DNA of 36,690 nucleotides from NCBI GenBank assembly GCA_000710935.1, contig BAYV01000017.1, positions 1-36,690 of the forward strand. Reading direction: 5' to 3'. The stretch is from Iodidimonas nitroreducens (lineage in GTDB: Bacteria > Pseudomonadota > Alphaproteobacteria > Sphingomonadales > Rhodothalassiaceae). The position numbers and the translations under genes were made by a program. Shown here piece by piece: positions 1 to 14,885 of this stretch. A model generated the notes under the pieces. That model searched no databases and was not told where the DNA came from. It saw only the letters and a program-made list of their open reading frames with translations. Every line of letters begins with the position of its first letter. Position 1 is the stretch's first letter.

Positions 1-373
1 CCGCCGCCACCGCCGCCGGGCCGTGCAAAAGCCGGGTGGCGCTGTCGGTGATTTCGGTCAATAAAGGCAGCAGCCGGGCTTCCCCCAGATGGTTCAAGGC
101 TGCCGCATAAAGTTCAGACTGAACCGTCTGTTCGCGCTGCCACCAACTTTGCGACCAATCGCTGCGCTCTGCCGCCGCCCGGGCATCCGCCCAATCGGCA
201 ATCCAAAAGAGTACGCAATCTGTGAAGCCCAAGCCCTTCAGATAGGCCAGCGCCGTTGTCGTCTCGCCCTTGGTGGGGGGCTCCCCCACAGCGGCAAACC
301 ACGAAGCCGCCTCCATATCGCTGATCAGCCCCCGCACGATTGCGTGCCCCCTCTCTGCGGCCAAAGCGTTCAT
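1..373 (-). CDS. Unrecognised protein, last visible gene of the aromatic operon (partial)
   Basis: The reading frame opens with ATG at 373 and stays open for about 124 codons to the window edge, so its C-terminus is missing. The start shares an ATGA with the stop of the upstream dioxygenase gene (4-nt overlap), which implies translational coupling. The visible part begins MNALAAERGHAIVRG and is rich in Ala, Trp and acidic residues, with a WIADWADARAAAE stretch and an SWWQRE motif. I see no signal peptide, membrane segment or nucleotide-binding loop. I do not recognise the family. Position suggests a role after or beside ring cleavage, but it does not look like a fumarylacetoacetase-type hydrolase or a GST-type maleylpyruvate isomerase in the part that is visible. 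The function is unknown. Confidence 0.75.
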   Translation of the reverse strand, partial: MNALAAERGHAIVRGLISDMEAASWFAAVGEPPTKGETTTALAYLKGLGFTDCVLFWIADWADARAAAERSDWSQSWWQREQTVQSELYAAALNHLGEARLLPLLTEITDSATRLLHGPAAVAA

Positions 374-1434
374 GGATGCGCCTCGTCCATGCGATCTTCC
401 CGCCACAGGCCCAGCTTTTGCTGCACCCCGCGATCAGAATAGCTGAACAGCACGCTGTCATCCTCGGCATGATGGGTCACCGGCACCCAGGTGGGCACCA
501 CAAACAGATCATTCGGCCCCCAATCGAAGCGCTGATCGCCGATCAGGCTGTGGCCGCGCCCTTCAACACACACAAAAACCGCACTATCGGTGCTGCGATA
601 GGGCTTGCTGGCAAAGCCGCTCGGCAAAAGCTGCAAAAAGGTGGCGATGGTGGGCATGGCAAAATCGCCGGTGCCCGGATGCACATATTTCTGCTTGATC
701 CCATGGCAGGGATCGACAACACCGGCAGCACGCAATTTTTCCAGAACCAATCGGCTGCGGGCATAGGGATAATTGAACACTGGCGAAGTGGAAAAGGCCG
801 CTGCCTCATAATCCACCGGCAAAAGACCGCTGCCAAAGCGCGCCGGGGCATCGTTTTCAGGCTTGGTCAAGGCCTGACGATCTTCGGTCCCTTGTTCGGC
901 AAAGCTTGCATTCATGAAATATACCAAAGGGATATCTAGACCATCGAGCCAGATCATCGGCTGATCGGTTTCATTGCCATGATCATGCCATGTCCAGCTT
1001 GGGGTGATCACGAAATCCCCCCGCTCCATGATCGTGCGTTCGCCATTCACACTGGTAAAAGCGCCGCTGCCCTCCAGAACAAAGCGCAGGGCCGATTGTG
1101 TATGGCGATGGGCCGGGGCCACATCACCGGGCAGCACAAGCTGAATGGCGGCATAAAGGGTGGGGGTAATCCGCGATTCCCCCGGCCAGGCCGGATTTTC
1201 AAGGATCAGGGCCCGGCGCTCGGCCTCTTTGGCGGTGATCAGATCGCCCGCTTCCATCAGATAGCGCCGCACATCGGCATAAGCCCAATGGGCCGCCGCC
1301 ATCTCCGGCCTTGGCTGGGGGGTGACAAGATCGTGCAGAACCGTCCACAGGGCAGAAATATTGCGCCCCTTCAGCCGCCCATAGAAATCTTCGCGGGCGG
1401 CGGCCAGATCATTTTTATGCGCCGAGCCGTTCAT
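370..1434 (-). CDS. Gentisate 1,2-dioxygenase-like bicupin ring-cleavage enzyme
   Basis: This 354-residue protein has the two-cupin layout and length of gentisate 1,2-dioxygenases, which use Fe(II) and O2 to open gentisate to maleylpyruvate in the cytoplasm. The N-terminal cupin shows APAHRHTQSALRFVLEG with H109 and H111, and a third ligand H150 in WTWHDHG. The 2- and 39-residue spacings match the H/H/H triad I recall for the E. coli enzyme. The C-terminal cupin (GRGHSLIGDQRFDWG, about residues 285-330) lacks a clear triad, as is usual. The ATG at 1434 follows AAGGGA at good distance, 36 bases after the oxygenase gene. Salicylate 1,2-dioxygenase and 1-hydroxy-2-naphthoate dioxygenase belong to the same family, so the substrate is inferred, not proven. 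Confidence 0.88.
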   Translation of the reverse strand: MNGSAHKNDLAAAREDFYGRLKGRNISALWTVLHDLVTPQPRPEMAAAHWAYADVRRYLMEAGDLITAKEAERRALILENPAWPGESRITPTLYAAIQLVLPGDVAPAHRHTQSALRFVLEGSGAFTSVNGERTIMERGDFVITPSWTWHDHGNETDQPMIWLDGLDIPLVYFMNASFAEQGTEDRQALTKPENDAPARFGSGLLPVDYEAAAFSTSPVFNYPYARSRLVLEKLRAAGVVDPCHGIKQKYVHPGTGDFAMPTIATFLQLLPSGFASKPYRSTDSAVFVCVEGRGHSLIGDQRFDWGPNDLFVVPTWVPVTHHAEDDSVLFSYSDRGVQQKLGLWREDRMDEAHP

Positions 1435-1470
1435 GGCACGATCCCTTTCATCACGCCGATTGACGCCAGA

Positions 1471-2184
1471 TTACGCCGCTTGTGAAACGTCGGGCAATTC
1501 CAGCCCCAATTCATCAACCAGCGCCTGCGCCCGATTGAGATAATCCGCCCGCATATCTTCATTCTTGCGTAATTTAATGCCCCATTTGCGGAAAATCTCG
1601 TTGTTTTTGGATTTATCCCGCCCAAAAAAGCCCGGCAAAACAGGGAAATAATCATTGATCGCCTGCTGAATGGCTGCTTTGCCCTCAGGCGTGCGGATCA
1701 TTTCACTGGTAAATTCCTTTCCGAAATCAGCATGAAATTTTTCTTCCGGCATGGTGGCCCGGGCCAGATTGCGCAAAGGATGGAAGGTGCAATGCAGCAG
1801 ATCTTCCACCTGCAAAATTTCCGCCAGATCGGCCAAAAGCTTGATGACGCAGAATTCCGCCCAGTTTTTCAAAGGATATTCAAAAATCGACAGGGGCTTT
1901 TTATCGCCGCCGGGCATCAGTTCAGCTTCCGACATGCCAAGCTTCTGGCCCAGTTCCTTGAACCTTACATGATGGCCATATTCTTCCATGGCCACCCGGC
2001 AGGTGAGCCATTTGGCATAGGGCGTGGGGGCAAGGGCAATGGCCGGCTCATCAAAAACCTGCGCGCCATAAAGTTCATTGATGGCATGGCTGCGGACCAG
2101 CTTTTTGATCGCGTCTTTATATTCATCGGCCTGATCGGCAAAATCTTCGATCGTTTTCACAGCAGCAATATCAGATGTGCTCAT
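1471..2184 (-). CDS. PaaA-like di-iron (ferritin-fold) aromatic-CoA oxygenase
   Basis: This 237-residue, largely helical protein resembles the PaaA/PaaC family of ring-1,2-phenylacetyl-CoA epoxidase. A complete set of di-iron ligands is visible: E37 (NELYG), the ExxH motif E68-H71 (MEEYGHH), an acidic residue around E122 and a second ExxH, E148-H151 (PEEKFH). Unlike structural PaaC it is therefore probably catalytic. Known family members activate O2 to epoxidise or hydroxylate aromatic-CoA thioesters, taking electrons from a reductase. The reductase is two genes upstream. A longer frame runs to 2322, but ATG 2184 has an AAGGA box seven bases upstream and starts 4 bases after the SDR stop, so I chose it. 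No separate PaaC, PaaB or PaaD subunit is present, so it may work alone. Substrate is inferred: a CoA ester made by the nearby ligase. Confidence 0.78.
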   Translation of the reverse strand: MSTSDIAAVKTIEDFADQADEYKDAIKKLVRSHAINELYGAQVFDEPAIALAPTPYAKWLTCRVAMEEYGHHVRFKELGQKLGMSEAELMPGGDKKPLSIFEYPLKNWAEFCVIKLLADLAEILQVEDLLHCTFHPLRNLARATMPEEKFHADFGKEFTSEMIRTPEGKAAIQQAINDYFPVLPGFFGRDKSKNNEIFRKWGIKLRKNEDMRADYLNRAQALVDELGLELPDVSQAA

Positions 2185-2188
2185 GGTG

Positions 2189-3157
2189 CTATCCTTGGAT
2201 GATGGGGTCGGTGTTGAAAGCATCGAGATCGGATTGAATGGCAAAATAATGCTCGGAAAAATTCGTGGCCGCAGCCGATGCCAGGCCCTGCTCGTCCCAT
2301 GGCTGATCCTGGGCAATGGCATGGGCGATGGGGCGCGGCTGGCTCATCAAAAACACATCGCCGCCCCGCACCCCGATCAATTGGCCACTGATACCGGCCC
2401 CCAGATCAGAGGCGAGCCAGGCACAGGCCACCGCCACCGGCTGAGCGGGAAGCTGCAGGGCCCGGGCGCGATATTCCTTTAAAAGATCGGTCACGGGCGG
2501 CAGGCTTTCGGTCACCCGGGTGGCGGCAAAGGGCATGATGGCATTTGCCGTGATGCCTGCGCGTTCAAGCTCCAGCGCCTGAACCCGGGTCAATCCCAGC
2601 AATCCCGCCTTGGCACTCGCATAGGCCGAAACGCCGAAATTGCCGTAAAATGCCGCGGATGAAACCATATTAATCAGCCGCCCGCCCGGGCGTCCGGCTT
2701 TTGCCTGTTCGCGCATTTTGGGGGTTGCGGCATGGGCCAGATAATAGGCCGCCGACAGATTGACCTGGAGCACGCGATCAAAATCCGCCGGATCGCCCTT
2801 GAAAATCATGGCATCGCGCAAGATGGCCGCATTATTCACCACAATATCAACCGCGCCAAATTGCGTGATGGCCAGATCCACCGCGCGGGCCGCAGCTTCG
2901 GGGCTGGCGATATCAATCTCCAAAGCCGCCAGCCGCGCGCCATCGGCCCCTTTGGCGATCAGGGCTTCGCGCTGCTGTTCGATCAGGCCCTTTTCAGGAT
3001 CGCGGCCATCGATGCCGGAGCCATCATCCACCAGCACAAGAGACGCGCCCAAGGCCGCAAAGCGTTCGGCCACCGCAAAGCCAATGCCCCGCCCGGCCCC
3101 GGTGATGATCGCCACACGCCCGGCTAAAAGGCCATCCGATTGCAGATCATCGGTCAT
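2189..3157 (-). CDS. Short-chain dehydrogenase/reductase (SDR), long C-terminal tail
   Basis: This is a classical SDR with the cofactor loop TGAGRGIG (19-26), NNAA (108-111) and the catalytic set S166/S167, Y179 and K183 in SAYASAK. At 322 residues it is about 60 longer than the usual 250-270. The extra length lies in the C-terminal tail and in an insert after the second beta strand (DDGSGIDGRDPEKG). Both are reminiscent of multifunctional-enzyme-type hydroxyacyl-CoA dehydrogenases. The start ATG shares its A with the stop of the reductase gene (TGATG), and GGAGA lies upstream, so the two are coupled. Sitting between the reductase and the oxygenase, it may oxidise a dihydrodiol-, enol- or hydroxyacyl-CoA intermediate. 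That role is inferred; the SDR assignment is sure. Confidence 0.9.
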   Translation of the reverse strand: MTDDLQSDGLLAGRVAIITGAGRGIGFAVAERFAALGASLVLVDDGSGIDGRDPEKGLIEQQREALIAKGADGARLAALEIDIASPEAAARAVDLAITQFGAVDIVVNNAAILRDAMIFKGDPADFDRVLQVNLSAAYYLAHAATPKMREQAKAGRPGGRLINMVSSAAFYGNFGVSAYASAKAGLLGLTRVQALELERAGITANAIMPFAATRVTESLPPVTDLLKEYRARALQLPAQPVAVACAWLASDLGAGISGQLIGVRGGDVFLMSQPRPIAHAIAQDQPWDEQGLASAAATNFSEHYFAIQSDLDAFNTDPIIQG

Positions 3158-4224
3158 CAGATCGTCTCCTTTTCGAGATCAGCCTTTTTAAGATCGGCTT
3201 CAGAATAAAAAGCATCGGCATGAATGGCATTGGGGGCGATCCCCAGATCGGGCAATAGCCGCTCCGCCGCTTCCACCATCGGCGGTGGCCCGGCCAGATA
3301 GGCGGTGAACCCTTCCAATGTGCCGCTGGGCGATAGATGCGGCAGGTCTTCTTTTACGATATCGGTAACAAGGCCAAAGCGCCGCTGCGCCGCCTTCAGC
3401 ACGGCATCAGAAGGTGCGGATAAAACCGGGGTGAAATGGAAATGGGGATGGGCCGCGCATAAGCCTTCAAAATGATCGACAAGATAAAGATCGCGTTCAT
3501 CGCGGACGCCAAAATAAAAATGCACCGGTTCGGCCCAGCCCAGTTTTGCGGCCCTATCGATGATCGATTTGATCGGCGAAAGCCCCGAACCCCCCGCAAT
3601 CGCCAAGATGGGGCCACGGCGTTCCTCGCGCAGGGCAGCGGTGCCCGATGGGCCCTTCACCCGCACCTGATCCCCCGGCTGCAGGTGATCGGCCAGATAG
3701 CGGCTGGCCCGGCCATCGGACAGAATCCGCACATAAAATTCAAGGAAATCATCATCGGGCTGGCTGGCCATCGACCAGCTTCGGGCTGGCTGATCGGGCA
3801 AGGCAACATCGGCAAATTGCCCCGGCGTAAAGGTAAAGGGCCCGCCCGAAAGGATGGAAAGGCGCAAGCTCATAATATCATGGGTGAGAGGGGTGATGGC
3901 TTTCACCTCGCAGGCCATATCGCGCATGGGATGCACCATCTGATCATCTTCATCAGCCAGTTCGATTTCACAATCGCTCCAGGGCACAGCCCGGCAGGCC
4001 AGAATGAAGCCGCGCTTTTCTTCATCGGCGCTCAAAGCAAATTCCGAAAATGGCGACATTTCCACCTCGCCCGAAAGCAACCGGCATTTGCAGGTGCCGC
4101 AATTACCCGAGCGGCAGCTATGGGGGAACGGTCCCCCGGCCAGCATGGCGGCATCCAGGATCGTGCGCCCCATCTCAACAGAGATCGGTTCATCCCGGTC
4201 CTTGATCGAAACAGTGAAATTCAT
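3157..4224 (-). CDS. Ferredoxin-NAD(P)H oxidoreductase, electron supplier for the oxygenase
   Basis: This 355-residue protein has a plant-type [2Fe-2S] domain at the N-terminus (C37-x4-C42-x2-C45-x31-C77), followed by an FAD domain with RSWS at 148-151 and an NAD(P) domain with AIAGGSGLSP at about 208-217. Ferredoxin-first order is that of BenC, XylZ and MmoC-type reductases, whereas PaaE carries its ferredoxin at the C-terminus. It passes electrons from NAD(P)H to an oxygenase, here most likely the PaaA-like protein. It is the first gene of the operon. ATG 4224 fits the family's beginning (NFTVSIKDRDEP); the open frame upstream to 4329 encodes nothing family-like. An AAAGG sits 11 bases before the ATG. 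Confidence 0.9.
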   Translation of the reverse strand: MNFTVSIKDRDEPISVEMGRTILDAAMLAGGPFPHSCRSGNCGTCKCRLLSGEVEMSPFSEFALSADEEKRGFILACRAVPWSDCEIELADEDDQMVHPMRDMACEVKAITPLTHDIMSLRLSILSGGPFTFTPGQFADVALPDQPARSWSMASQPDDDFLEFYVRILSDGRASRYLADHLQPGDQVRVKGPSGTAALREERRGPILAIAGGSGLSPIKSIIDRAAKLGWAEPVHFYFGVRDERDLYLVDHFEGLCAAHPHFHFTPVLSAPSDAVLKAAQRRFGLVTDIVKEDLPHLSPSGTLEGFTAYLAGPPPMVEAAERLLPDLGIAPNAIHADAFYSEADLKKADLEKETI

Positions 4225-4599
4225 GTGGCACACAACCTTTCGGGTGATCCGCGCAACCGGATGTGATTTTAAAATCCATCGCTTCCAAATTGCAGATGCA
4301 ACGGTGTCAGGGGATGGCGGCCCTGTCAAGCAATTGTATGGGTTACAAACAATATAATTTCACATAACTTTCTTAGGTTTCTGACAAATCATGTGCATAT
4401 ATAAAAAGTTACACATGATTTGTCCGGCGTATGATGGCGGGATATCACAAAATGTTGAACACTAGATCGCAAAGAAATGCGCGCCCCTGCCGCAAGGCGC
4501 TTGGCAAGATTATATTGTAAGGTATAATGACAAATAATGATCTGTCCAAGCGATCAGCCAAAGCCCATGAAAGCCTGACCACCAAAAGGAGCAACCGCT
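4225..4599. other. AT-rich divergent promoter region
   Basis: This 375-base gap separates the aromatic operon (minus) from the OsmC gene (plus) and holds no convincing gene. It is clearly more AT-rich than its flanks and contains a TATATAAAAA stretch and the large inverted repeat at 4384-4423. It most likely carries the promoters of both units. I could not place -35/-10 pairs with confidence. Confidence 0.7.
4384..4423. promoter_or_regulatory. Perfect 12-bp inverted repeat, candidate operator
   Basis: ACAAATCATGTG (4384-4395) is repeated in exact inverted form as CACATGATTTGT (4412-4423) around a 16-base AT-rich spacer. The half-site centres are 28 bp apart. It lies 160-200 bp upstream of both divergent start codons. 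No T-run follows on either strand, so it is not an intrinsic terminator. The local MarR protein is the obvious candidate binder, although MarR sites are usually shorter palindromes; two dimers or a looped site would fit the spacing. I saw no second copy near 6288-6454. Confidence 0.6.
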
Positions 4600-5802
4600 T
4601 TGAAATCCATTCAGACGATGAACATGCCCCTTGCCTGCCCCGTGGCGCTGCCGGTGGATGGGCTGGAGCCATGGATGAGCGGATCATCATCTGCCAGCAC
4701 CCTTCATCTCCATACCGTGGCCGGGGCGATGGAAGGGATGCAGAAACAGGCGCTGGTGGTGGATGCGGCCAGCCAGCGCATCTGGAATTTTGCCTGTGAT
4801 GAGGGCCCCTATCTCAATGGCACCGATCTCGCCCCTTTTCCTTTGGCCTATTTCAACAGCGGCCTGGGATTTTCCCTCTTTTGCGAAATCGAAAACCTTG
4901 CCCATGCCCGCGGGGTGCGGCTTGATGATCTGGAGCTTTGCCTTGATAGCTTTTACGGCATGGAGGGTTCAGCCCTTAAAGGCACCATGACCGGCAGCGC
5001 CCTGCCGCCGGTTCTGGCGATCAACGCCAAAACCGATCTGGATCGCCCTGCTTTGATGCAGCTTGTGGCCGATGCGGTTTCGGCCGCCCCCGCCAATGCC
5101 CTGCTGCGCGCGGCACTGGATAGCGAGTTTCTCGGCAGCCACAATGATCAGGCGCTGGAGGTCAAAGATTTAAACCGCATTGACGGCGCGTGCCTGCCCA
5201 ATCCCCAAGCCATCCTCGACAGCATCAAAGCCGATGATCGCGCCGATGTCCGCGATGATATCGTCACCAAGCTCAGCCAGACGGAAGCGGTTTTTGGCGT
5301 TGAGGGCGGGGCGGGCACCAGCCTTCAGGCGGATCAGAGCCGGCAATTGCATATTCGCGGGCTGATCCATCGCCGGTCCGATGGCCTGCTGGAAAACAAG
5401 GTGCAGCTTTATAAACCCATCGGCAGCGTTTTCCGCTTTTTGGGGGATAGCGCCCCGCAATTTGGCGGCACCGGTCGGGCGCCATCGGGGCTCGCCTATT
5501 TATCGGCAGGGCTGGCTTTTTGTTACCTTACCCAGATCGGGCGCTTTGCCCATATCAAGAAACTGCCGCTCAGCCATTATAGCCTGCATCAGGATACCCG
5601 CTTCAGCCTGCCCGGCGCTTCATCGGGCACAATGGAAGTGGCGAGCGCTAAAGCCGTGCAAAGCCATGTGCATATCCGATCCGATGCCCCCGATGCGGAG
5701 ATCGCCCATCTGATGATCATGGCCGAGCAAACCTGCTTTTTGCACGCCGCCTGCCGCACCGCCCTGAAGCTGAAAATCCGGGTCCAACCACTGGCCGGAT
5801 AG
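4600..5802 (+). CDS. Double-domain OsmC/Ohr-like protein
   Basis: This 400-residue protein seems to consist of two OsmC-like halves, about twice the usual 140-180 residues. OsmC/Ohr proteins reduce organic peroxides with two cysteines at opposite ends of buried helices. In the second half both are plausible: LAFCYLTQ near residue 307 and QTCFLHAACR near 377-383. In the first half I see only FSLFCEIENLA near 96 and no partner in the matching helix (LVADAVSAAPANALL), so that half may be non-catalytic. The start is a TTG preceded by AAGGAG at ideal spacing; the next ATG (4618) is too far from that box. Placed opposite the oxygenase operon, it may protect against peroxides made by oxygenase uncoupling, or handle a thioester. 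Both roles are inference. Confidence 0.75.
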   Translation: MKSIQTMNMPLACPVALPVDGLEPWMSGSSSASTLHLHTVAGAMEGMQKQALVVDAASQRIWNFACDEGPYLNGTDLAPFPLAYFNSGLGFSLFCEIENLAHARGVRLDDLELCLDSFYGMEGSALKGTMTGSALPPVLAINAKTDLDRPALMQLVADAVSAAPANALLRAALDSEFLGSHNDQALEVKDLNRIDGACLPNPQAILDSIKADDRADVRDDIVTKLSQTEAVFGVEGGAGTSLQADQSRQLHIRGLIHRRSDGLLENKVQLYKPIGSVFRFLGDSAPQFGGTGRAPSGLAYLSAGLAFCYLTQIGRFAHIKKLPLSHYSLHQDTRFSLPGASSGTMEVASAKAVQSHVHIRSDAPDAEIAHLMIMAEQTCFLHAACRTALKLKIRVQPLAG

Positions 5803-5831
5803 GGTCTTTAAGGCTCACCCCCCCCAGTTGA

Positions 5832-6287
5832 CTACCCATTGAATTTTTGCAGCAGGCTGCGCAGGCGGTCAAATTCAATGGCAGTCAGCTTTTGGGACAC
5901 ATCGGCTTCATGGGCACGGATGGCAGGGATCAACTGATCAACAAAAGCATCCCCTGCCGCCGACAGGCTCAAGGAATAAGCCCGGCGATCCCCCGGGCGC
6001 GGATTGCGCACAATGAAATCGCGGCGCACCAGCCCTTCGATGGTTTGCCCTAAAGTCGCCCGCTCAACCTGCATGGCGCGGGCCAGATCGGATTGGGAAA
6101 TACCCGGATTATCGCGGATCAAAATCAACAGCCCGGCCTGCCCCGGGGTAATCTGCAGGGGGGCCAAAGATTCGCGGAAATGTTGAAATAATTTGACCTG
6201 TGCCAAGCGCAGGCGAAAACCGAATAAATCGTCAAGACTTGAAAAATCAAGTGTCTGCGCTTTTTTCCGCACCTGTTTCGGCGGCAT
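5832..6287 (-). CDS. MarR-family transcriptional regulator
   Basis: This 151-residue winged-helix protein has the family pattern: a dimerisation helix, then ITPGQAGLLILIRDNPGIS, the recognition helix region SDLARAMQVERATLGQTI, the wing (RNPRPGDRRAYSLSLS) and a C-terminal dimerisation helix. MarR proteins of aromatic clusters often repress until an acyl-CoA or phenolic ligand binds. It is divergent from the CoA ligase with a gap of about 167 bases, the usual set-up for control of that gene and itself. A GTG at 6302 is in frame, but ATG 6287 has AAGGA six bases upstream and is preferred. Its stop lies 29 bases from the stop of the OsmC gene. Confidence 0.92.
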   Translation of the reverse strand: MPPKQVRKKAQTLDFSSLDDLFGFRLRLAQVKLFQHFRESLAPLQITPGQAGLLILIRDNPGISQSDLARAMQVERATLGQTIEGLVRRDFIVRNPRPGDRRAYSLSLSAAGDAFVDQLIPAIRAHEADVSQKLTAIEFDRLRSLLQKFNG

Positions 6288-6454
6288 TCCCGATCCTTCC
6301 ACGCCATGATCATCTCAACAACCATCATAGGCAAATGCCCAAAAGTCGCAAGCAGGCCGTGCACTGAACCCGATGTGCATCTTGCCCAAATGCTTTTATC
6401 CCCATATCGTATCCCCACCGCTTTTATTTGTAAGGGCAGGAGACAATTTTCCCG

Positions 6455-8110
6455 ATGCACGCCCGCCCCACAGCTTTGGTTGATCCTTTTATACTCGATC
6501 GCTTGCCGCGCCCCCCTTTGGCCCCCGATCTGATCTATGATCTGCCGCATCTGCACTTCCCCCAAAAATTGAATGCGGGGCGCTTTTTGCTGGATGCGGC
6601 TTTTCAAAAAGCCAAGGGCGAGCCTTTGTGCCGCAGCGATGATCTGTGCTGGACCGCTGATGAACTAAACGAAAAGGCCTGTAGCCTCGCTGCCCTGCTG
6701 CAAAAAAAATACGGCCTTTTGCCGGGCCAGCGGGTGGTGCTGCGCAGCCCCAATAGCCCCTTTTTGATGGCCGCCCTTTTAGGCATTTTTCTGGCCGGGG
6801 GGATTGCCGTGCCGGGATCGCCCCTCCTCGGCCCTTCAGAATTGCACCATGTGCTCAGCAGCACCCGGCCCGCCCTTGTTTTATGCGGATCGGATCAGGA
6901 TCCCAATCTTGATATGGCCCGGCAAAAAGCAATGGCGAACAGCGCCACACCGCCCCTGAAGCTGATCCTTGATGCGGATCTGCTGATAGAAGCGGCCGCC
7001 TTTCGCCAAGATTTCACGGCCATCAACAGCATGGGCGATGATCCCGCGCTTATTTTATTCACCAGCGGCACCAGCGGGCGGCCCAAAGGCGCCGTGCACA
7101 GCCATAAGGCCATTGTCGCCCTCGCCCGGGGCTTTGGCGATCATCTTTTCGCGGCCGGGCCGGGGGATCTGGTTTTTGGCAGCCCATCCCTTGGTTTTGC
7201 TTATGGTTTTGGGCTTTTATTTGTCTGCCCACTGGCGGCGGGGGCCTGCTGCCTGTTATCGCCCGATGGCCGCCCTGATGCCCTTCTTGATGATCTGGTG
7301 CGCTATCGCCCAACGATCCTGGTCACCGTGCCCACGGTTTATTTGCGGCTGCTCGCCTCAAAAATAAGCTTGGCCTCAAAAACACATTTGCCCACAGCCA
7401 GCTTGCGGCGCTGTTTTTCTGCGGGCGAACCCCTGAGCCAGACCCTTGCCGAAAGCTGGGAAGCCCGCACCGGGGTGCCTGTTCTCGATCTTTTGGGCTC
7501 GACCGAAATGCTGGGGCCTTATATTGCATCCGATGAAACGAGCCGCATTCCGGGCTGTGCCGGGCGGGCGGTGCCGGGCTATGAACTGAAGCTTCTTGGC
7601 AAGGATGGCGCCGCGCTTCGGCCCGGCAGCACCGGTCGCCTTGCGGTGCGCGGGCCCACAGGCGCGCAGTTCCTCGATCCCCGCGATCAGGCGGGAGTGA
7701 TCAAGGATGGCTGGACCCTGACCGGCGATCTGTGCCGCCTTGATCTTGATGGGCGCATCTGGTTCAAGGGCCGGGCCGATGACATGATCTTGTCATCAGG
7801 CCATAGCATCGCCGCCATCGAGGTGGAAAGGGCGCTCATGAGCCACCCGGCGGTGGAGATGTGCGCAGTCACCGGCCTGCCCGATGCCGACCGAGGGCAG
7901 TTGGTAGCGGCTTTGGTGGTGCTGCGGCCTGATGATAGCGATCAGCAGGGCAAAACGGATGCCCGATCCCTGATCGATCATGTAAAAGCCTCCATCGCGC
8001 CCTATAAAGCGCCGCGCCGGATCGCTTTTGTTGAAAGCCTGCCGCGCACCCCATCGGGGAAGATCCGGCGCACGGCCCTTGGCTCAATGTTCGGTGATGA
8101 CATTCAATAA
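6455..8110 (+). CDS. Aromatic acid-CoA ligase (2-aminobenzoate/salicylate type)
   Basis: This 551-residue ANL-superfamily ligase has the phosphate loop LFTSGTSGRPKG (about 199-210), the A5-type motif LDLLGSTEM, the hinge TGDLCRLDLDGRIWFKGRADDM and the catalytic lysine region PSGKIRRTAL (about 534). It activates a carboxylic acid to acyl-AMP and then to acyl-CoA. The N-terminus (YDLPHLHFPQKLNAG) and VHSHKAIVALARGFGDHLF resemble 2-aminobenzoate-CoA and salicylate-CoA ligases as I remember them, more than fatty acyl-CoA ligases. With a gentisate-type dioxygenase nearby, salicylate is the attractive substrate; anthranilate or another benzoate remains possible. AGGAG lies about 12 bases before the ATG, rather far. 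The last 27 bases overlap the 3' end of the opposing ThDP gene. Confidence 0.85.
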   Translation: MHARPTALVDPFILDRLPRPPLAPDLIYDLPHLHFPQKLNAGRFLLDAAFQKAKGEPLCRSDDLCWTADELNEKACSLAALLQKKYGLLPGQRVVLRSPNSPFLMAALLGIFLAGGIAVPGSPLLGPSELHHVLSSTRPALVLCGSDQDPNLDMARQKAMANSATPPLKLILDADLLIEAAAFRQDFTAINSMGDDPALILFTSGTSGRPKGAVHSHKAIVALARGFGDHLFAAGPGDLVFGSPSLGFAYGFGLLFVCPLAAGACCLLSPDGRPDALLDDLVRYRPTILVTVPTVYLRLLASKISLASKTHLPTASLRRCFSAGEPLSQTLAESWEARTGVPVLDLLGSTEMLGPYIASDETSRIPGCAGRAVPGYELKLLGKDGAALRPGSTGRLAVRGPTGAQFLDPRDQAGVIKDGWTLTGDLCRLDLDGRIWFKGRADDMILSSGHSIAAIEVERALMSHPAVEMCAVTGLPDADRGQLVAALVVLRPDDSDQQGKTDARSLIDHVKASIAPYKAPRRIAFVESLPRTPSGKIRRTALGSMFGDDIQ

Positions 8111-9847
8111 AGCAGGCACGCCCGCCGCCACTTTTTCCAAAGCCCGGGATAGCGCCCCCATCATCGCGGCGGGATCGCTCACCTCCTCACCATAGCCGCC
8201 ACAGGCTTTGGCGATCTCGTGAAAAGCCGGGGATGGGTCCAGCGCGGTCATCGGCATCAGATTGGCGCGCATGGCATGGCCATCGGGATAGACCGAGGCC
8301 GTCGCCGTTTTCACCGCATTCCAGCGGCGATTATTGAACACGATGGTGAGGGTGGCAATCTTATGGGCGGCGGCCACCTGATGGCAGGCCACAGGATTGG
8401 CAAACATATGGCTGCCATCGCCCAAGGTGCAGATCACCATGCGATCGGGCTGCGCCAGCTTCAGCCCCAAAGATGCAGGCAATCCCCAACCCAAACCGCC
8501 CGCATTGCTGGGGCCATAAAAGCTGCCGGGGCGGGTAAAGCGCATCACCGGGCGGATACAGCCGATTTCATTGACGATAATCGCATCTTCGGGCTTTAGC
8601 CGATCAAGGCAATGGCTGACCCATGCGGGCGTCATCCGGGCGGGAATTTCGGGCTTTTGCGGATCGCTGCCCAAAAGCCGGGCCTTCAATTCATGGCGGG
8701 CCTTTTCATGGGCAAGGCTTCGTTTTTCGCGGCGGGCATCGATAGCCTTTTGCTGGCCTTGGGCTGCCTTTGCAAAGGCCTGAGAAAGCGCGGGCAGGCC
8801 AAAAGCGGGGCGGCATAAAAGGCACAGATCGGCGGAAAAGCCCCGGATCGGAATATCCTGCGCCAAAGGATCGCTGCCCATCTGAATGACCAGCGCCTTG
8901 TGCGGCCAATCATGGCGGGCGGGCAGCCAGGGGGCCGGGGTATCGAGGACCAGAATAACATCATGATCGGCAAAATCGGCGGTGAAATCAAAGCCCGCCT
9001 GCATGGGATGATCTGAGGGCAGATTGAGATAATTGGCGCGATATTCAATCACCGGGCAAGCGGCAAGGCTGGCAAAATCCGCCAAAGCCGCCACGGCATC
9101 GGGATCGCGCCCCGACCGGCTGGTGATGATCAGCGGATTTTTGGCGGCTGCCAATATCTGCGCCGCCTGCTCGATCTGGCTGTGATCGATGCCCGTGGCC
9201 CGCGCGGGGCTGATCCGGCTATGGGGTGAAATCGCCAGCGTCGGCGCGGGTTCCGCCAATGTTTCGCGCGGCATTCCTAAATAAATCGGCCCGCCCGGAT
9301 CGCTTGTGGCCAGCGCCATGGCCCGATCCACCATCGTGTCCATCGCCGTGCCGGGGCGCAATTCATAATCCCAAACCACCGCTTCGCGCAGCATCCCGGC
9401 CTGATCATACATTTCCTGACCCCAATGGATCGACACATCGCGGCTTGATGCCGAACCGCTTTCGGTGATCGGGGTGCGGCCAGCGCCAAAAAAGATCGGC
9501 ACATTTTCCCGCGCGGCATTGAGCAGGGCACACAGGCTATTGGCCAGCCCCACGCTGACATGGACCATCGCCGCCTGCATCCGCCCGCTGCCCAGATAAT
9601 AGCCATGGGCCATCGAGACCGCAGCATTTTCATGGGGCACCAGAATGGGCTGGGGCAAGGAAAGCCCCGATTGCGGTGCCCGGGCATAGGCTTCGATGAT
9701 CGCCGGGAAATCGGTGCCGGGATTGGCGAAAAGATAATCGATCCCCCGCGCCTTCATCACCGCCAGCAGGGCTTCCGCCGTGGTTTCGACCGGCAAATCC
9801 AGCTTATCCTGAACGCCCAAATTATCATGATTTTGATCACGCATCAT
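8084..9847 (-). CDS. Thiamine diphosphate-dependent enzyme of the acetolactate synthase/decarboxylase superfamily
   Basis: This protein of about 587 residues has all three domains. The N-terminal PYR domain carries the catalytic glutamate E73 (VPHENAAVSMAHG), the middle domain is degenerate, and the C-terminal PP domain has GDGSHMFANPVACHQ closing with NN (the GDG...NN metal/ThDP motif, about residues 473-500). It resembles the poorly characterised group labelled thiamine pyrophosphate-requiring protein rather than true IlvB. Benzoylformate- or other 2-oxoacid-decarboxylase activity, or a lyase acting on a CoA ester, are possible. The frame extends to a GTG at 9883; I place the start at one of two adjacent ATGs (9847/9844), with only a GGGGG box upstream. 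It converges on the CoA ligase with a 27-base overlap. Confidence 0.8.
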   Translation of the reverse strand: MMRDQNHDNLGVQDKLDLPVETTAEALLAVMKARGIDYLFANPGTDFPAIIEAYARAPQSGLSLPQPILVPHENAAVSMAHGYYLGSGRMQAAMVHVSVGLANSLCALLNAARENVPIFFGAGRTPITESGSASSRDVSIHWGQEMYDQAGMLREAVVWDYELRPGTAMDTMVDRAMALATSDPGGPIYLGMPRETLAEPAPTLAISPHSRISPARATGIDHSQIEQAAQILAAAKNPLIITSRSGRDPDAVAALADFASLAACPVIEYRANYLNLPSDHPMQAGFDFTADFADHDVILVLDTPAPWLPARHDWPHKALVIQMGSDPLAQDIPIRGFSADLCLLCRPAFGLPALSQAFAKAAQGQQKAIDARREKRSLAHEKARHELKARLLGSDPQKPEIPARMTPAWVSHCLDRLKPEDAIIVNEIGCIRPVMRFTRPGSFYGPSNAGGLGWGLPASLGLKLAQPDRMVICTLGDGSHMFANPVACHQVAAAHKIATLTIVFNNRRWNAVKTATASVYPDGHAMRANLMPMTALDPSPAFHEIAKACGGYGEEVSDPAAMMGALSRALEKVAAGVPALLNVITEH

Positions 9848-9992
9848 CAGCCCCCGCCATCGGCCATGCCCATAAATAAGCACATCCCATTAACAACAGA
9901 CTGTATGGTGACCTAACATATTTAGGACAGCAAGGATTTTATTGATCGATCTGTGAAATCCCGGTGTCAGAACTCTGGCTCAGCCCCAAAAA

Positions 9993-11613: not shown

Positions 11614-12351
11614 TCATGATGATGGGAACCTCAGAAAGGATGTGATCGTAAGCCGCCCCTCCAGGGGATCGGATGAAAAGCCAAAGGCCGCACCGATATC
11701 GCCCGCATGCAAAAGGCAGCCGGGATAAACCACCGCCCGATTATAGCGCGGTGCAATCTGTGCCGTGCGCGCGAAAAGGGCGCTATCAGACCCCATATAG
11801 CCCGGCTTTGGCAGGCCGATCCGGCTGGCATCGGCGGCCAGTGCCTTTTGATAGGCGCGGGCGCGATTGCTGGTGATGGCATCATGGCCGGTGCCTTTAT
11901 GGCGATAAAAAGAGGTGCCGCCAAAATCCTGTTTGAACAGATAATGCACCACCGCGATATGGCCGGGATCGCTGCTATCGAAATGCGGGATCGATTGAAT
12001 GGGCAGCAGGCTTTCCGGCGCTTGGGTGACCAGCGAAAACAGGCATTGCACCGCCAGGGGGGGTGTATCAGGCGAAAGGCCCAAGGGTTCAGCCAGATGG
12101 TGGCTGATGAACCCCGCCAGAAAATCGCCATAAGCAGCGGGAGCCGGGGCGCGCAGGCCGGGATAATAATTGCCCGGCTCGCGATCATAAGGCCCGGCCG
12201 TGGCCGCCTCGGTCCGCATCCGGTCAGGATCATCGAGCAGATCATCAATCACCAGAACCCGATAGCCATCAAGGCTTTCATGGGCGATGATCCCGCTGAT
12301 CGCCGCCCCCCGCTGCAGGCCTGAAGATGAAGGCATGGCCATCGCCGCCAT
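11614..12351 (-). CDS. DUF6445-type protein of the halogenase locus
   Basis: This 245-residue protein is of a kind often found next to tryptophan-halogenase-like genes and SapC. It has YRVLVIDDLLDDPD near the start, IPHFDSSDPGHIAVVHYL in the middle and RYNRAVVYPGCLLHAG near the end. The H-x-D pair (HFD) and the distal histidine in LLHAG look like the metal triad of a 2-oxoglutarate/Fe(II) oxygenase (prolyl hydroxylase fold). That is my inference; no activity is established to my knowledge. A longer frame begins at 12387, but the ATG at 12351 shares its A with the stop of the SapC gene (TGATG), which argues for coupling from this start. Confidence 0.75.
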   Translation of the reverse strand: MAAMAMPSSSGLQRGAAISGIIAHESLDGYRVLVIDDLLDDPDRMRTEAATAGPYDREPGNYYPGLRAPAPAAYGDFLAGFISHHLAEPLGLSPDTPPLAVQCLFSLVTQAPESLLPIQSIPHFDSSDPGHIAVVHYLFKQDFGGTSFYRHKGTGHDAITSNRARAYQKALAADASRIGLPKPGYMGSDSALFARTAQIAPRYNRAVVYPGCLLHAGDIGAAFGFSSDPLEGRLTITSFLRFPSS

Positions 12352-13127
12352 CAGGAAGCGCTTTGGGCGGGATCGGGCTGAAACCATTGGCCAGCCTGCG
12401 CCATCATCTTGTTTTTCCGCTGCACCAAAGCAAAAATATGGCCCAGCGAAACGATCATCGCATAAAGGGCGGGCAAATGGCCCTGCTGGCGCAGTTCATC
12501 AATCACCGCAATCGGGGCCGCTTCCAGCGCATCCTCGTCGATGGTGTAAACCCCCTGCACCTTCATCTGCTCGCCATCATCGAGGGTGATTTCAAGGGCC
12601 AGACGGGTCAGCAGCTTATAGTGCACCAGCTTTTCGATGAAGGCCCGGGTGGCCGCTTCACCGGCAACAAGCTGAGCCAGAATATCCTGCATGGATTGCA
12701 GATAGGGCGTGGGCGCGCCCGCCGCATCAAACAGCGCTTCGCCTTTTTCACTGCCAAGGCTGGGGCTTTCGGGATCGATGCACAAAACGAAATCATGGCC
12801 TGTATCGGATCGATCCTTGGCACTTTGCTGAGGGCGACCAGCAAAAAAAGGCTGGCGCTGCACATTCAAAGGCACATAAAGGGCATCCCATTCCCCCTGC
12901 CGCCAAAACAGATTTTCCCCCTCCTCAAATCCACACAGAGCGATGGCAGTAAAAAAGCCGCTATCTGCATTTTTGGTGAGCAATAAGGGAAATTGCGTTG
13001 CCGCCTTCAGAAATTCCGAGATCACCACCGGCATCATCCGCACGCTGGCGCTATGGGCTTCCACCTGATCGGGATCGACCCGCAGCTTGCGATGATGCGC
13101 GGGATGAAGCGCTATGAGTTCAGTCAT
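12351..13127 (-). CDS. SapC-family protein
   Basis: This 258-residue soluble protein shows the SapC-family pattern: an N-terminal HHRKLRVDP segment, MPVVISEFLKAATQFPLLLTKN (18th residue onward of that block abbreviated in family logos), GFEEGENLFW, then a C-terminal helical region ending in KNKMMAQAG. SapC was named from a Campylobacter S-layer locus, but in proteobacteria most copies sit beside TonB receptors and flavin halogenases, as here. No catalytic motif or signal peptide is visible, and its role is unknown. It lies 28 bases after the halogenase and is coupled by TGATG to the next gene, so the three probably act together. Confidence 0.85.
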   Translation of the reverse strand: MTELIALHPAHHRKLRVDPDQVEAHSASVRMMPVVISEFLKAATQFPLLLTKNADSGFFTAIALCGFEEGENLFWRQGEWDALYVPLNVQRQPFFAGRPQQSAKDRSDTGHDFVLCIDPESPSLGSEKGEALFDAAGAPTPYLQSMQDILAQLVAGEAATRAFIEKLVHYKLLTRLALEITLDDGEQMKVQGVYTIDEDALEAAPIAVIDELRQQGHLPALYAMIVSLGHIFALVQRKNKMMAQAGQWFQPDPAQSAS

Positions 13128-13155
13128 GATCGATCATTCCCCCTCATGATCCCGT

Positions 13156-14712
13156 TCAAATCGCCTGCAGGCCGGTGCGCCTGATCTTTTCGATCAAATC
13201 GCGATTTTTAGGTAAGGCGCGCAAAACCTGATCTTTTTGTTTGGCATTTTTTCCAAAAAGGGTCATGGCATCTTTTTCCCTGTGCAGGCGATGGGCCTGA
13301 TAGCTGAAATCTGTTTCAAACCCCATGCCATACAAAACATATTGATAGCTGGCCGCCGGGAAAACTTCATTATTACTTGTGAAATCGGCATTGCCGGGCG
13401 CTTGATAGCGCCAGATCTCTAATTGCTGGCGCAGGCTTTCCGGAATGGTGGCCGGATCGCGATTATCGATCCAGAAAGCACTGTCGGTGCGCTGGCTCAG
13501 CATATAATGCAGCTTCAAAAAATCGATGATCCGATCCCAGCGATAGGCTGTTGTTTCATTGAAGCGCTTGGCTGCCAGATCCATCACATCGCGGCAGGCG
13601 GGCATGTTTTTGGCGATCATATCCGCCGATAATTCGATCAAAACCAGCGCCGAGGCTTCCAAAGGCTCCAGAAAGCCCGCCGAAAGGCCGACCGCCACGC
13701 AATTATGGCGCCAAAAGGTTTCGCGATGGCCCGAACGGATGGGAATCTGGCGCACCGAAAGCCGATCAAAAGCAGGGCCCACATAGGCGCGCAAGGTTTC
13801 GGTGGCGGCCTCTTCGCTTTGATAGCGGCTGGAATACACATAGCCCACACCCCGGCGGCTGGGGAGCCCAATATCCCACACCCAGCCCGCCGATTGCGCG
13901 GTGGAAAGGGTATGCGGCACGATAGGATCATCATCTTGGGCATAGGGCACCTGCACCGCCAAAGCCCGATCAATGAACAGCACATCATCACAGGGCTTGA
14001 AGGGCACATCATAATGCCGGCCCAGCAAAAGCGATGAAAAGCCGGTGCAATCAATGAACAGATCGCCCTCGATCCGCCCCGATGCTGCGGTTTCCAGCCC
14101 CGCAATATCGCCAGTATCCGCCGCCACCACGCCCTTCACATCATCCAGAATATGGCGCACGCCCAGCTTTTGGGTGCAATGGCTTTGCAAAAATGCGCCA
14201 AATTTCCCCGCATCCAGATGATAGGCATAATTGGCAACCGCTTCATATTCCGGCGTGGTGATCAGCTTGGGCGCCAGATTGCGCTCGCACATCGCTTCCT
14301 GGAAACACACCGCATCGGAAAAGGATATTTTTTGTTTCGTACTCGAAACGATCTTTTTCCAATAAGGGGCAAGATCAAAGGATTGAAAGCTTTGGGGCAG
14401 CATCAGGGGATGATAATAAAAATCATCATCGCGCCCGGTGACCCAGCGCTGGAATTTTGCGCCCTGTTTGAAGGATGCATCGCATTCCTTGAAAAAATCG
14501 GTTTCGGAAATGCCCAATTTAATCAGGGTCGCCCGCATGGTGGGCCAGGTGCCTTCACCAACCCCGATGGTGGGCACGGTGGGGGATTCCACCAAAGTGA
14601 CCGAAAGGCCATCTTTTTCATAAGCGCGATGCTCGGCAGCAATGAGGCCAGCGGTCAGCCAGCCCGCCGAGCCACCACCCACAATCACAATGGATCTGAT
14701 TGCCTTGCTCAT
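13156..14712 (-). CDS. Flavin-dependent halogenase of the tryptophan-halogenase family
   Basis: This 518-residue FAD enzyme has the dinucleotide-binding motif VGGGSAGWLTAG (11-22), the family signature GVGEGTWPT (50-58), the catalytic-lysine region CDASFKQGAKF (K82 is the likely equivalent of PrnA K79) and an EPLEAS motif around the expected catalytic glutamate. The halogenase signature WxWxIP appears as WVWDIG, with glycine for proline. I recall this variant from TonB-receptor-linked members, whose native substrates are unknown. It presumably uses reduced flavin from an unlinked reductase to make HOCl or HOBr. ATG 14712 follows GGGGAG by 11 bases. It heads the unit halogenase-SapC-DUF6445-symporter. 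Whether it halogenates anything in vivo cannot be judged. Confidence 0.9.
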   Translation of the reverse strand: MSKAIRSIVIVGGGSAGWLTAGLIAAEHRAYEKDGLSVTLVESPTVPTIGVGEGTWPTMRATLIKLGISETDFFKECDASFKQGAKFQRWVTGRDDDFYYHPLMLPQSFQSFDLAPYWKKIVSSTKQKISFSDAVCFQEAMCERNLAPKLITTPEYEAVANYAYHLDAGKFGAFLQSHCTQKLGVRHILDDVKGVVAADTGDIAGLETAASGRIEGDLFIDCTGFSSLLLGRHYDVPFKPCDDVLFIDRALAVQVPYAQDDDPIVPHTLSTAQSAGWVWDIGLPSRRGVGYVYSSRYQSEEAATETLRAYVGPAFDRLSVRQIPIRSGHRETFWRHNCVAVGLSAGFLEPLEASALVLIELSADMIAKNMPACRDVMDLAAKRFNETTAYRWDRIIDFLKLHYMLSQRTDSAFWIDNRDPATIPESLRQQLEIWRYQAPGNADFTSNNEVFPAASYQYVLYGMGFETDFSYQAHRLHREKDAMTLFGKNAKQKDQVLRALPKNRDLIEKIRRTGLQAI

Positions 14713-14748
14713 CGGCTTTATATCTCCCCAAAAAAGACTTTAGCTGGC

Positions 14749-14775
14749 CAAAAAAGCTTTAGCGGCCATAAAGCT
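14749..14775 (-). terminator. Probable intrinsic terminator after the TonB receptor
   Basis: On the minus strand AGCTTTA, a 7-base loop and TAAAGCT form a perfect 7-bp stem followed directly by a run of T (the A-run at 14749-14754 on the plus strand). It lies about 110 bases downstream of the receptor stop and 37 bases upstream of the halogenase start. It would separate the two transcripts or attenuate read-through. The stem is AT-rich, so efficiency is uncertain. Confidence 0.55.
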
Positions 14776-14885
14776 CTGGCGGGTTTTCCCCCTTATCCAG
14801 TGCTTATCAGGCCGACACAGGCACCCGCCCTGATGGCCGATGCCTGTGCCCGAGCAGCCCAATGGCCGCCTGATGATCAAAGCGA

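What the first reader, a model, noticed from the sequence alone, without database searches (positions are those of the whole stretch)
1..8110. CoA-dependent gentisate-type pathway with a PaaA-like di-iron oxygenase instead of a flavin hydroxylase
Seen: reductase, SDR, PaaA-like protein with a full di-iron ligand set, gentisate-type dioxygenase and an unknown protein in one coupled operon, opposite a 2-aminobenzoate/salicylate-type CoA ligase. Known: salicylate via salicylyl-CoA and gentisyl-CoA uses a flavoprotein 5-hydroxylase; PaaA and BoxB epoxidise aryl-CoA esters but feed hydrolytic ring opening. Inferred: here a lone PaaA-like subunit with a BenC-type reductase hydroxylates an aryl-CoA, the SDR rearomatises or oxidises the product, and the gentisate-type enzyme cleaves the ring. 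I know of no characterised pathway with this combination.
Basis: partly seen in the sequence, partly recalled or inferred. Interest (0 to 1): 0.72.

Follow-up and report, generated by a model that had tools for sequence, protein, structure and literature searches.

The report
Di-iron oxygenase route to gentisate
A conserved bacterial gene set pairs an oxygenase related to those that attack phenylacetate and benzoate with the enzymes that break the ring of gentisate, which suggests a way of degrading aromatic acids that has not been tested at the bench.

Summary
The minus-strand operon (4224 to the contig edge) encodes a BenC/MmoC-type reductase, a CoA-ester-type SDR, one PaaA-like di-iron protein ("PaaAL"), a gentisate 1,2-dioxygenase (GDO) and an unknown protein cut by the contig end. 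Its continuation on another contig supplies FAH-family and MaiA-type enzymes, as a lower gentisate pathway needs. In 80 related loci the SDR adjoins PaaAL in 80 and the reductase in 76; the other 4 loci begin at or just before the SDR. In 385 alphaproteobacterial genomes GDO is present in 23 of 23 with PaaAL and 38 of 362 without. PaaAL is its own clade outside PaaA and BoxB, keeps all six iron ligands and lacks PaaA's bridge lysine. In the host genome searches found no Rieske alpha subunit, BoxB, second PaaA/PaaC-type protein or aromatic-type FAD_binding_3 hydroxylase. Best reading: a new aerobic aryl-CoA route in which a di-iron oxygenase and an SDR make gentisyl-CoA, which is hydrolysed and ring-cleaved by GDO. 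The substrate is unresolved: redox balance favours benzoyl-CoA, frequent co-occurrence with BoxB speaks against it. My literature searches listed no such pathway.

The parts
3157..4224 (-). NADH-type reductase: 2Fe-2S, FAD and NAD domains in the BenC/MmoC order (the ferredoxin domain comes first, unlike PaaE as described in PMC4498308)
   Evidence: upstream of SDR and PaaAL in 76 of 80 loci, the other 4 beginning at or up to 235 bases before the SDR match
2189..3157 (-). SDR of the (3R)-hydroxyacyl-CoA dehydrogenase type; catalytic Ser, Tyr and Lys and a beta-2 Asp (NAD-type by the usual rule, recalled) conserved; inferred to dehydrogenate the oxygenase product
   Evidence: best PDB match 2et6; residues in 80 rows; adjacent in 80 of 80 loci
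1471..2184 (-). PaaAL: PaaA-like di-iron protein, 237 aa, inferred catalytic component acting on an aryl-CoA
   Evidence: PF05138; AlphaFold pLDDT 94.8; Foldseek to PaaA, TM 0.88; ligand positions invariant
370..1434 (-). gentisate 1,2-dioxygenase
   Evidence: TIGR02272 524 bits, cut-off 442; 2d40 397 bits
2..373 (-). conserved unknown protein, N-terminal part only (contig edge); a C-terminal part lies at G000:C81:58914-59117
   Evidence: follows PaaAL in 73 of 80 loci; no Pfam match for this part
4600..5802 (+). double OsmC-like protein, divergent from the operon; role unclear, seen in 1 of 83 compared loci (I. muriae)
5832..6302 (-). MarR-family regulator, likely of the cluster
   Evidence: a MarR within the fetched locus in 63 of 80
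6455..8110 (+). AMP-forming CoA ligase nearest to the benzoate-CoA ligase family; inferred to activate the acid substrate
   Evidence: TIGR02262 269 bits, below cut-off 375; 2v7b
8084..9883 (-). thiamine-diphosphate enzyme (PRK08327 type), neighbour; membership of the pathway uncertain
   Evidence: a relative also stands in loci L008 and L010

Best explanation
The operon encodes an aerobic aryl-CoA pathway that ends in gentisate. An aromatic acid is activated to its CoA ester. PaaAL, fed with electrons from NADH by the reductase, oxygenates the ring at its di-iron centre. The NAD-dependent SDR oxidises a ring hydroxyl that stands beta to the thioester, giving gentisyl-CoA. A thioesterase releases gentisate, GDO opens the ring, and the GST-type isomerase and FAH-family hydrolase give fumarate and pyruvate. 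Shown by sequence: the families, gene order, conservation, iron ligands, the presence of lower-pathway families, and the absence from the host genome of the other ring-hydroxylase families that were searched. Inferred: every reaction of the upper part and the exact activities of the lower part. My committed substrate guess (about 0.35) is benzoyl-CoA: BoxB-like 2,3-epoxidation, water entering at C5, and SDR oxidation of the C2 hydroxyl account exactly for benzoyl-CoA + O2 -> gentisyl-CoA and give the SDR a job. The confidence below is for the core claim (aryl-CoA in, gentisyl-CoA out), not for this substrate.
For: GDO over cut-off in 23 of 23 genomes with PaaAL against 38 of 362 without (Fisher p 6e-21, not corrected for relatedness). 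Of 48 genomes picked because the fetched PaaAL locus had no GDO beside it, 42 have a GDO over the cut-off somewhere. Self-contained operons: L217, from a proteobacterium outside this class, has reductase-SDR-PaaAL-GDO-unknown-FAH-thioesterase-isomerase-CoA synthetase with ATP-grasp in a row; L075, L077 and L083 have reductase-SDR-PaaAL-GDO-unknown-AMP ligase-thioesterase. A thioesterase lies within the fetched locus (up to 8 kb each side) in 53 of 80 and a CoA ligase of one of three kinds in 47 of 80. Host genome (98.7% complete): no Rieske alpha subunit; 1 PF05138 protein; no BoxB; the two longer FAD_binding_3 matches are UbiH and geranylgeranyl-reductase types, the other three being stretches of 32-35 positions not examined further. 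SDR nearest to a (3R)-hydroxyacyl-CoA dehydrogenase, with the Asp in 78 of the 78 rows that have the position. Fold and ligands as in PaaA and BoxB.
Against: No activity or expression data exist here. BoxB occurs in 10 of 12 PaaAL genomes of the 190 searched, against 22 of 178 without PaaAL, so benzoyl-CoA already has a route in most of them. No enzyme is assigned to the proposed water addition. In the Iodidimonas cluster (L008) neither thioesterase type was recognised, and the CoA synthetase beside it in the host is an alpha half without ATP-grasp. GDO directly follows PaaAL in only 28 of 80 loci, and 6 of 48 genomes without one beside PaaAL have none over the cut-off. GDO also occurs in 38 genomes without PaaAL, so it often serves other routes. 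Two of 4 other PaaAL genomes tested, G108 and G197, carry strong FAD_binding_3 proteins (235 and 230 bits), so a flavin hydroxylase is not always absent; G235 and G472 reach only 104 and 97 bits. The isomerase scores as maleylacetoacetate isomerase and the hydrolase only to family level. P450s and two-component flavin hydroxylases were not searched.
Confidence: 0.66

Rival explanations
1. PaaAL is a plain monohydroxylase of a hydroxybenzoyl-CoA (3-hydroxy-, salicyl- or, with acyl migration, 4-hydroxybenzoyl-CoA), doing with di-iron what flavin enzymes do in the gentisyl-CoA routes I recall; the SDR has an accessory role.
For: One oxygen insertion gives gentisyl-CoA directly. Co-occurrence with BoxB in 10 of 12 genomes leaves non-benzoate substrates free for PaaAL. 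The ligase of L075 scores best against a 3-hydroxybenzoate-CoA ligase model, 280 bits, though far below its cut-off of 1000 and barely above the benzoate-CoA ligase family, 268. PaaAL has invariant polar residues next to the ligands that PaaA and BoxB lack (H73, K116, E123).
Against: It leaves an SDR that is adjacent in 80 of 80 loci without a necessary step.
Confidence: 0.3
2. The substrate is 2-aminobenzoyl-CoA: 5-hydroxylation, then oxidation and loss of ammonia lead to gentisyl-CoA.
For: The best PDB match of the L075 ligase is an anthranilate-CoA ligase, 186 bits, hardly ahead of benzoate-CoA ligase, 177.
Against: A quinone-imine route with a hydroxyacyl-CoA-type SDR has no precedent that I know; the window's own ligase matches a benzoate-CoA ligase best.
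Confidence: 0.08
3. The four-gene unit acts on some other CoA ester, and GDO is only a frequent companion.
For: In 52 of 80 loci GDO does not directly follow PaaAL. In one sister-clade locus, L182, the PaaA-like gene sits beside a reductase, an aldehyde dehydrogenase and a thiolase-like gene.
Against: GDO in 23 of 23 PaaAL genomes; self-contained operons with GDO and neighbours of the gentisate path in distant taxa.
Confidence: 0.12
4. The oxygenase works on free acids and the CoA ligases and thioesterases are incidental.
For: No thioesterase of the two types sought was recognised in the Iodidimonas cluster.
Against: PaaA and BoxB, the relatives described in PMC4498308, act on CoA esters (passages and section 7); the SDR is of a CoA-ester type; ligases and thioesterases are frequent in the loci.
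Confidence: 0.05

Closest known systems
Box pathway (BoxA/BoxB benzoyl-CoA 2,3-epoxidase)
   Same: Di-iron PF05138-related oxygenase that needs no structural subunit (PMC4498308, passages), aryl-CoA chemistry, same six ligands, Val at the PaaA bridge-lysine position
   Different: BoxA-type reductase and BoxC/BoxD ring opening replaced by a BenC-type reductase, an SDR and O2-dependent gentisate cleavage; BoxB is a separate clade
Phenylacetyl-CoA epoxidase PaaABCE
   Same: PaaA fold (TM 0.88) and ligands
   Different: No PaaC-type protein in the host genome, no Lys68 bridge (Val in 18 of 18 tree rows), reductase domains in another order, TIGR02156 94 bits against a cut-off of 280
Flavin-dependent salicylyl-CoA / 4-hydroxybenzoyl-CoA to gentisyl-CoA routes (recalled); gentisyl-CoA thioesterase in a Bacillus halodurans gentisate cluster (passages of PMC516016)
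   Same: CoA ligase, hydroxylation, thioesterase, GDO logic
   Different: The hydroxylase is a flavoprotein there; no aromatic-type FAD_binding_3 hydroxylase was recognised in this genome
Early proposal of aerobic benzoate oxidation via benzoyl-CoA, 3-hydroxybenzoyl-CoA and gentisate in a denitrifying Pseudomonas, 1993-1995 (recalled only, not seen here)
   Same: Benzoyl-CoA to gentisate
   Different: Proposed with a flavin monooxygenase and, as I recall, later superseded by the box pathway
BenABC + BenD (benzoate dioxygenase and dihydrodiol dehydrogenase; recalled)
   Same: BenC-type reductase plus oxygenase plus dehydrogenase
   Different: Rieske oxygenase on free benzoate giving catechol; here a di-iron protein and a hydroxyacyl-CoA-type SDR

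Membership tests
PF05138 PaaA/PaaC superfamily | profile match over the curated cut-off and ferritin-like di-iron fold | tested here: met
   100.6 bits, cut-off 28.5; Foldseek E 1.2e-11 to PaaA
PF05138 PaaA/PaaC superfamily | six iron ligands Glu42, Glu72, His75, Asp126, Glu155, His158 of PaaA | tested here: met
   A1 positions E38, E69, H72, D120, E149, H152 invariant in 60 rows and shared with 7 PaaA and 8 BoxB rows; ligand list from PMC4498308 section 7
PaaA of phenylacetyl-CoA epoxidase | TIGR02156 over cut-off 280 | tested here: not met
   93.6 bits
PaaA of phenylacetyl-CoA epoxidase | PaaC structural partner | tested here: not met
   only one PF05138 protein in the host genome, PaaAL itself
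PaaA of phenylacetyl-CoA epoxidase | PaaB bridging partner | not tested
   no search with a PaaB model was run
PaaA of phenylacetyl-CoA epoxidase | Lys68 lysine bridge | tested here: not met
   Val in 18 of 18 PaaAL tree rows, Lys in 7 of 7 PaaA rows
BoxB | TIGR03225 match and BoxB clade | tested here: not met
   no TIGR03225 match in the host genome; separate clades, 100/100 each
Gentisate 1,2-dioxygenase | TIGR02272 over cut-off 442 | tested here: met
   524.4 bits
Gentisate pathway | GDO, maleylpyruvate isomerase and fumarylpyruvate hydrolase together | tested here: inconclusive
   GDO met; an FAH-family protein and a GST over the cut-off of the maleylacetoacetate isomerase model stand on contig C81 and close to GDO in I. 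muriae; their maleylpyruvate/fumarylpyruvate specificity is inferred
Aerobic hybrid aryl-CoA pathways | oxygenase acts on the CoA thioester | not testable with these tools
   needs an enzyme assay

The most novel reading that the evidence does not exclude
A further aerobic hybrid pathway for benzoate: a BoxB-like di-iron enzyme epoxidises benzoyl-CoA, the epoxide takes up water at C5 instead of being opened by a BoxC-type enzyme, and a hydroxyacyl-CoA-type SDR oxidises the resulting 2,5-dihydrodiol-CoA to gentisyl-CoA. Coenzyme A chemistry is thereby joined to oxygenolytic ring cleavage, possibly with the unknown helical protein as partner subunit or hydration factor.
Probability: 0.3. Interest if true: 0.8.

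Novelty: new variant of a known kind. Interest (0 to 1): 0.62.

Why it matters
PaaA and BoxB, the characterised relatives, feed ring opening that does not use oxygen (PMC12521323, passages). This clade appears to feed gentisate cleavage in many uncultured and cultured Alphaproteobacteria (record titles include Reyranella, marine bins and Iodidimonas). If true, genes that match the 'phenylacetic acid catabolic protein' family mark a further substrate class, aromatic degradation in these genomes is being misread, and a new di-iron reaction becomes testable with a handful of proteins.

Tried and rejected
Flavin or Rieske hydroxylase elsewhere in the host genome as the real source of gentisate: rejected for the two families searched; in two of four other PaaAL genomes strong FAD_binding_3 proteins do exist. 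PaaAL as a PaaA or BoxB orthologue: rejected. Unknown protein as a PaaC-like subunit: its confident model (pLDDT 93.9) finds no PaaA/PaaC fold; the best PDB hit is weak, to the immunity protein RhsI2 (E 0.027), and 2 of 55 family members weakly match Pfam Imm5_like (best E 4e-4). It is also not PaaAL-specific. Substrate from the ligase or the TRAP binding protein: inconclusive. Promoter and terminator scan upstream of the operon: 2 of each found, against 1.0 and 0.6 expected from shuffles; nothing made of it. First tree had three BoxB rows taken from wrong reading frames; it was replaced, from which two further unassigned rows were dropped. In alignment A1 the window row begins one codon before the true start at 2184, so A1 numbers are one higher than in the protein; row 2 of A2 likewise starts one codon early. 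Of 180 relatives only the best 80 were returned and studied; counts of 83 also include three short loci, two of them second copies of L008 and L010. A1 and A2 used 60 and 55 rows, a part of the sequences available. The class comparison used the 385 genomes drawn by the tool; the genome-wide GDO check covered 50 of the 80 loci.
Full report
What is there. The window is contig C92 of a 3.08-Mb genome, 98.7% complete, and begins at the contig's first base. The genome is inferred to be an Iodidimonas: the match in a genome of the same genus (G001:C5:53206) falls at the same position as in the named record of I. muriae JCM 17843, with PaaAL 89% identical. On the minus strand lie, in order, a reductase, an SDR, the PaaA-like protein (PaaAL), a gentisate 1,2-dioxygenase (GDO) and an unknown protein, with overlapping or closely spaced ends. 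The unknown gene runs off the contig. A C-terminal part of such a gene is at the end of contig C81, followed there by an FAH-family hydrolase (PF01557), an acyl-CoA synthetase alpha half and a GST over the cut-off of the maleylacetoacetate isomerase model (271 bits, cut-off 171). In I. muriae these genes stand together after GDO. So the families of the lower gentisate pathway are all there. Beyond them on C81 come a MarR regulator, a TonB-dependent receptor, a DUF3179 protein and a TRAP-type binding protein. No FAD_binding_3 match lies on C81 or C92.

Families. GDO passes its equivalog cut-off and aligns with a solved GDO over residues 11-348 of 354. PaaAL matches PF05138 but falls far short of the cut-offs of the PaaA and PaaC models. 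Its model (pLDDT 94.8) superposes on PaaA with TM 0.88. The SDR's best solved relative is a (3R)-hydroxyacyl-CoA dehydrogenase; in 80 sequences the catalytic Ser, Tyr and Lys are invariant and an Asp closes the second strand in all 78 that have the position, which by the usual SDR rule (recalled) means NAD. The reductase has the BenC/MmoC domain order but scores below those models' cut-offs.

Conservation. A genome scan confirmed 180 relatives; the best 80 were returned. In these 80 loci the SDR adjoins PaaAL in 80, the reductase is upstream in 76 (the other 4 begin at or up to 235 bases before the SDR match), and the unknown protein follows in 73 (3 of the 7 misses end within 1.1 kb of PaaAL; in L017, L058, L063 and L084 it was not found although there is room). 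Within the fetched stretch, up to 8 kb each side and on either strand, a MarR regulator is present in 63, a hotdog thioesterase of two types in 53, a CoA ligase of one of three kinds in 47, GDO in 32 (28 directly after PaaAL), the FAH protein in 17 and the isomerase in 4. The three clusters L075, L077 and L083 hold reductase, SDR, PaaAL, GDO, unknown, AMP ligase and thioesterase. A proteobacterium outside the class (L217) has in one row reductase, SDR, PaaAL, GDO, unknown, FAH, thioesterase, isomerase and a full-length synthetase with ATP-grasp, divergent from a MarR gene. In a sample of 398 genomes of the phylum, 3 have PaaAL at E 1e-60 or better; one of the three is outside this class, and how many of the 398 are outside it was not told.

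Genome-level link to gentisate. In 385 alphaproteobacterial genomes PaaAL (over 400 bits; the next genome scores 146.5) is in 23. GDO over its cut-off is in 23 of those 23 and in 38 of the other 362. The genomes are related, so the p-value of 6e-21 is only a guide; but the implication runs one way, and GDO clearly also serves other routes. Of 48 genomes picked because no GDO stood beside PaaAL in the fetched locus (one of them, L045, has a match about 8 kb away at the locus end), 42 have a GDO over the cut-off, one has a truncated match, one a lower-scoring full-length one, and four have nothing convincing (two further genomes were positive controls and rang). In the 14 named control genomes none passed the GDO cut-off.

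Elimination in the host. One PF05138 protein, no Rieske alpha subunit, no BoxB, and among FAD_binding_3 proteins a UbiH-type hydroxylase and a geranylgeranyl-reductase type as the two longer matches, three other places being partial matches of 32-35 positions. PaaAL is thus the only candidate of these classes to make GDO's substrate, unless gentisate is simply imported. This does not hold everywhere: of four other PaaAL genomes, G108 and G197 have FAD_binding_3 proteins of 235 and 230 bits, G235 and G472 none above 104. P450s and two-component flavin hydroxylases were not searched.

Phylogeny. In a 49-row tree PaaAL is one clade (100/100), next to a small sister group of PaaA-like proteins (99/96) of which two of three loci show a reductase beside the gene (L182, L183), and apart from PaaA, BoxB and PaaC (deep joins involve long branches and are unsure). 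PaaAL keeps all six ligands, has Val like BoxB where PaaA has the bridge lysine, and has its own invariant residues near the ligands (R64, K116, E123; H73 is shared with the sister group).

Mechanism. The SDR is as constant as the oxygenase. A mere hydroxylation of a hydroxybenzoyl-CoA would not need it. Epoxidation plus water plus dehydrogenation takes benzoyl-CoA exactly to gentisyl-CoA, and the oxidised hydroxyl, at ring C2, is beta to the thioester, as a hydroxyacyl-CoA dehydrogenase expects. This is inference. Against it, BoxB is present in 10 of 12 PaaAL genomes of a 190-genome sample (22 of 178 others).

The unknown protein. No Pfam match for the window's part; in 55 members, 2 match Imm5_like weakly (best E 4e-4) and the other hits are single and weaker. 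The model is mostly helical with a C-terminal hairpin and its best structural hit is a weak one to an immunity protein. The family is found in 79 of 385 genomes, in 22 of 23 with PaaAL and 57 of 362 without. By the coordinates it lies within about 215 bases of GDO in eight genomes without PaaAL (G007, G050, G193, G209, G287, G301, G365, G379). In 11 of 19 loci examined, this genome's second copy included, it lies between a LolA-family and an exonuclease-III-like (Exo_endo_phos) gene. In a tree 16 of 17 such stand-alone relatives fall with both GDO-linked rows and one operon row (100/98), the other operon forms and L127 lying outside; the bootstrap had not settled and the root is uncertain.

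Literature. Searches for gentisyl-CoA (7 papers), PaaA + gentisate + diiron (none), epoxidase/gentisate combinations, salicyl-CoA and related terms (15 of 60 listed), hydroxybenzoyl-CoA + gentisate, 'phenylacetic acid catabolic protein' + gentisate (none) and benzoyl-CoA + gentisate listed no paper whose title or abstract start describes such a pathway. Of the papers only passages of PMC4498308 (plus its section 7), PMC9765128, PMC516016 and PMC12521323 were seen; the rest are listings. The 2025 review PMC12521323 describes hybrid pathways as CoA thioesterification, epoxidation and oxygen-independent ring cleavage. The library holds open-licence papers only, so a subscription paper may exist.

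Noticed in passing
L119:8130-8747 and L120-L137: The unknown protein has stand-alone relatives in many Alphaproteobacteria; in 11 of 19 loci examined they lie between a LolA-family and an exonuclease-III-like gene.
   Followed up: partly
L120, L131 and six further genomes by coordinates: GDO directly beside a relative of the unknown protein in eight genomes without PaaAL, so the unknown protein seems tied to gentisate metabolism more widely.
   Followed up: partly
L182-L184: Sister clade of PaaAL, beside a reductase in two of three loci; in L182 also an aldehyde dehydrogenase, a thiolase-like protein and a CoA ligase: perhaps another uncharacterised di-iron CoA-ester oxygenase.
   Followed up: partly
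genomes: BoxB co-occurs with PaaAL in 10 of 12 genomes against 22 of 178 without; the host genome is one of the two exceptions.
   Followed up: partly
window 12351-18113: SapC-like protein, tryptophan-halogenase-family flavoprotein and a TonB-dependent receptor in a row on the minus strand.
   Followed up: no
G000:C102:52406-53257: A protein over the cut-off of the bacteriochlorophyll-type geranylgeranyl reductase subfamily (496 bits, cut-off 343): the genome may carry photosynthesis genes.
   Followed up: no
window 4600-5802: Double OsmC-like protein between the operon and the regulator; of the 83 loci compared only I. muriae shows it.
   Followed up: no
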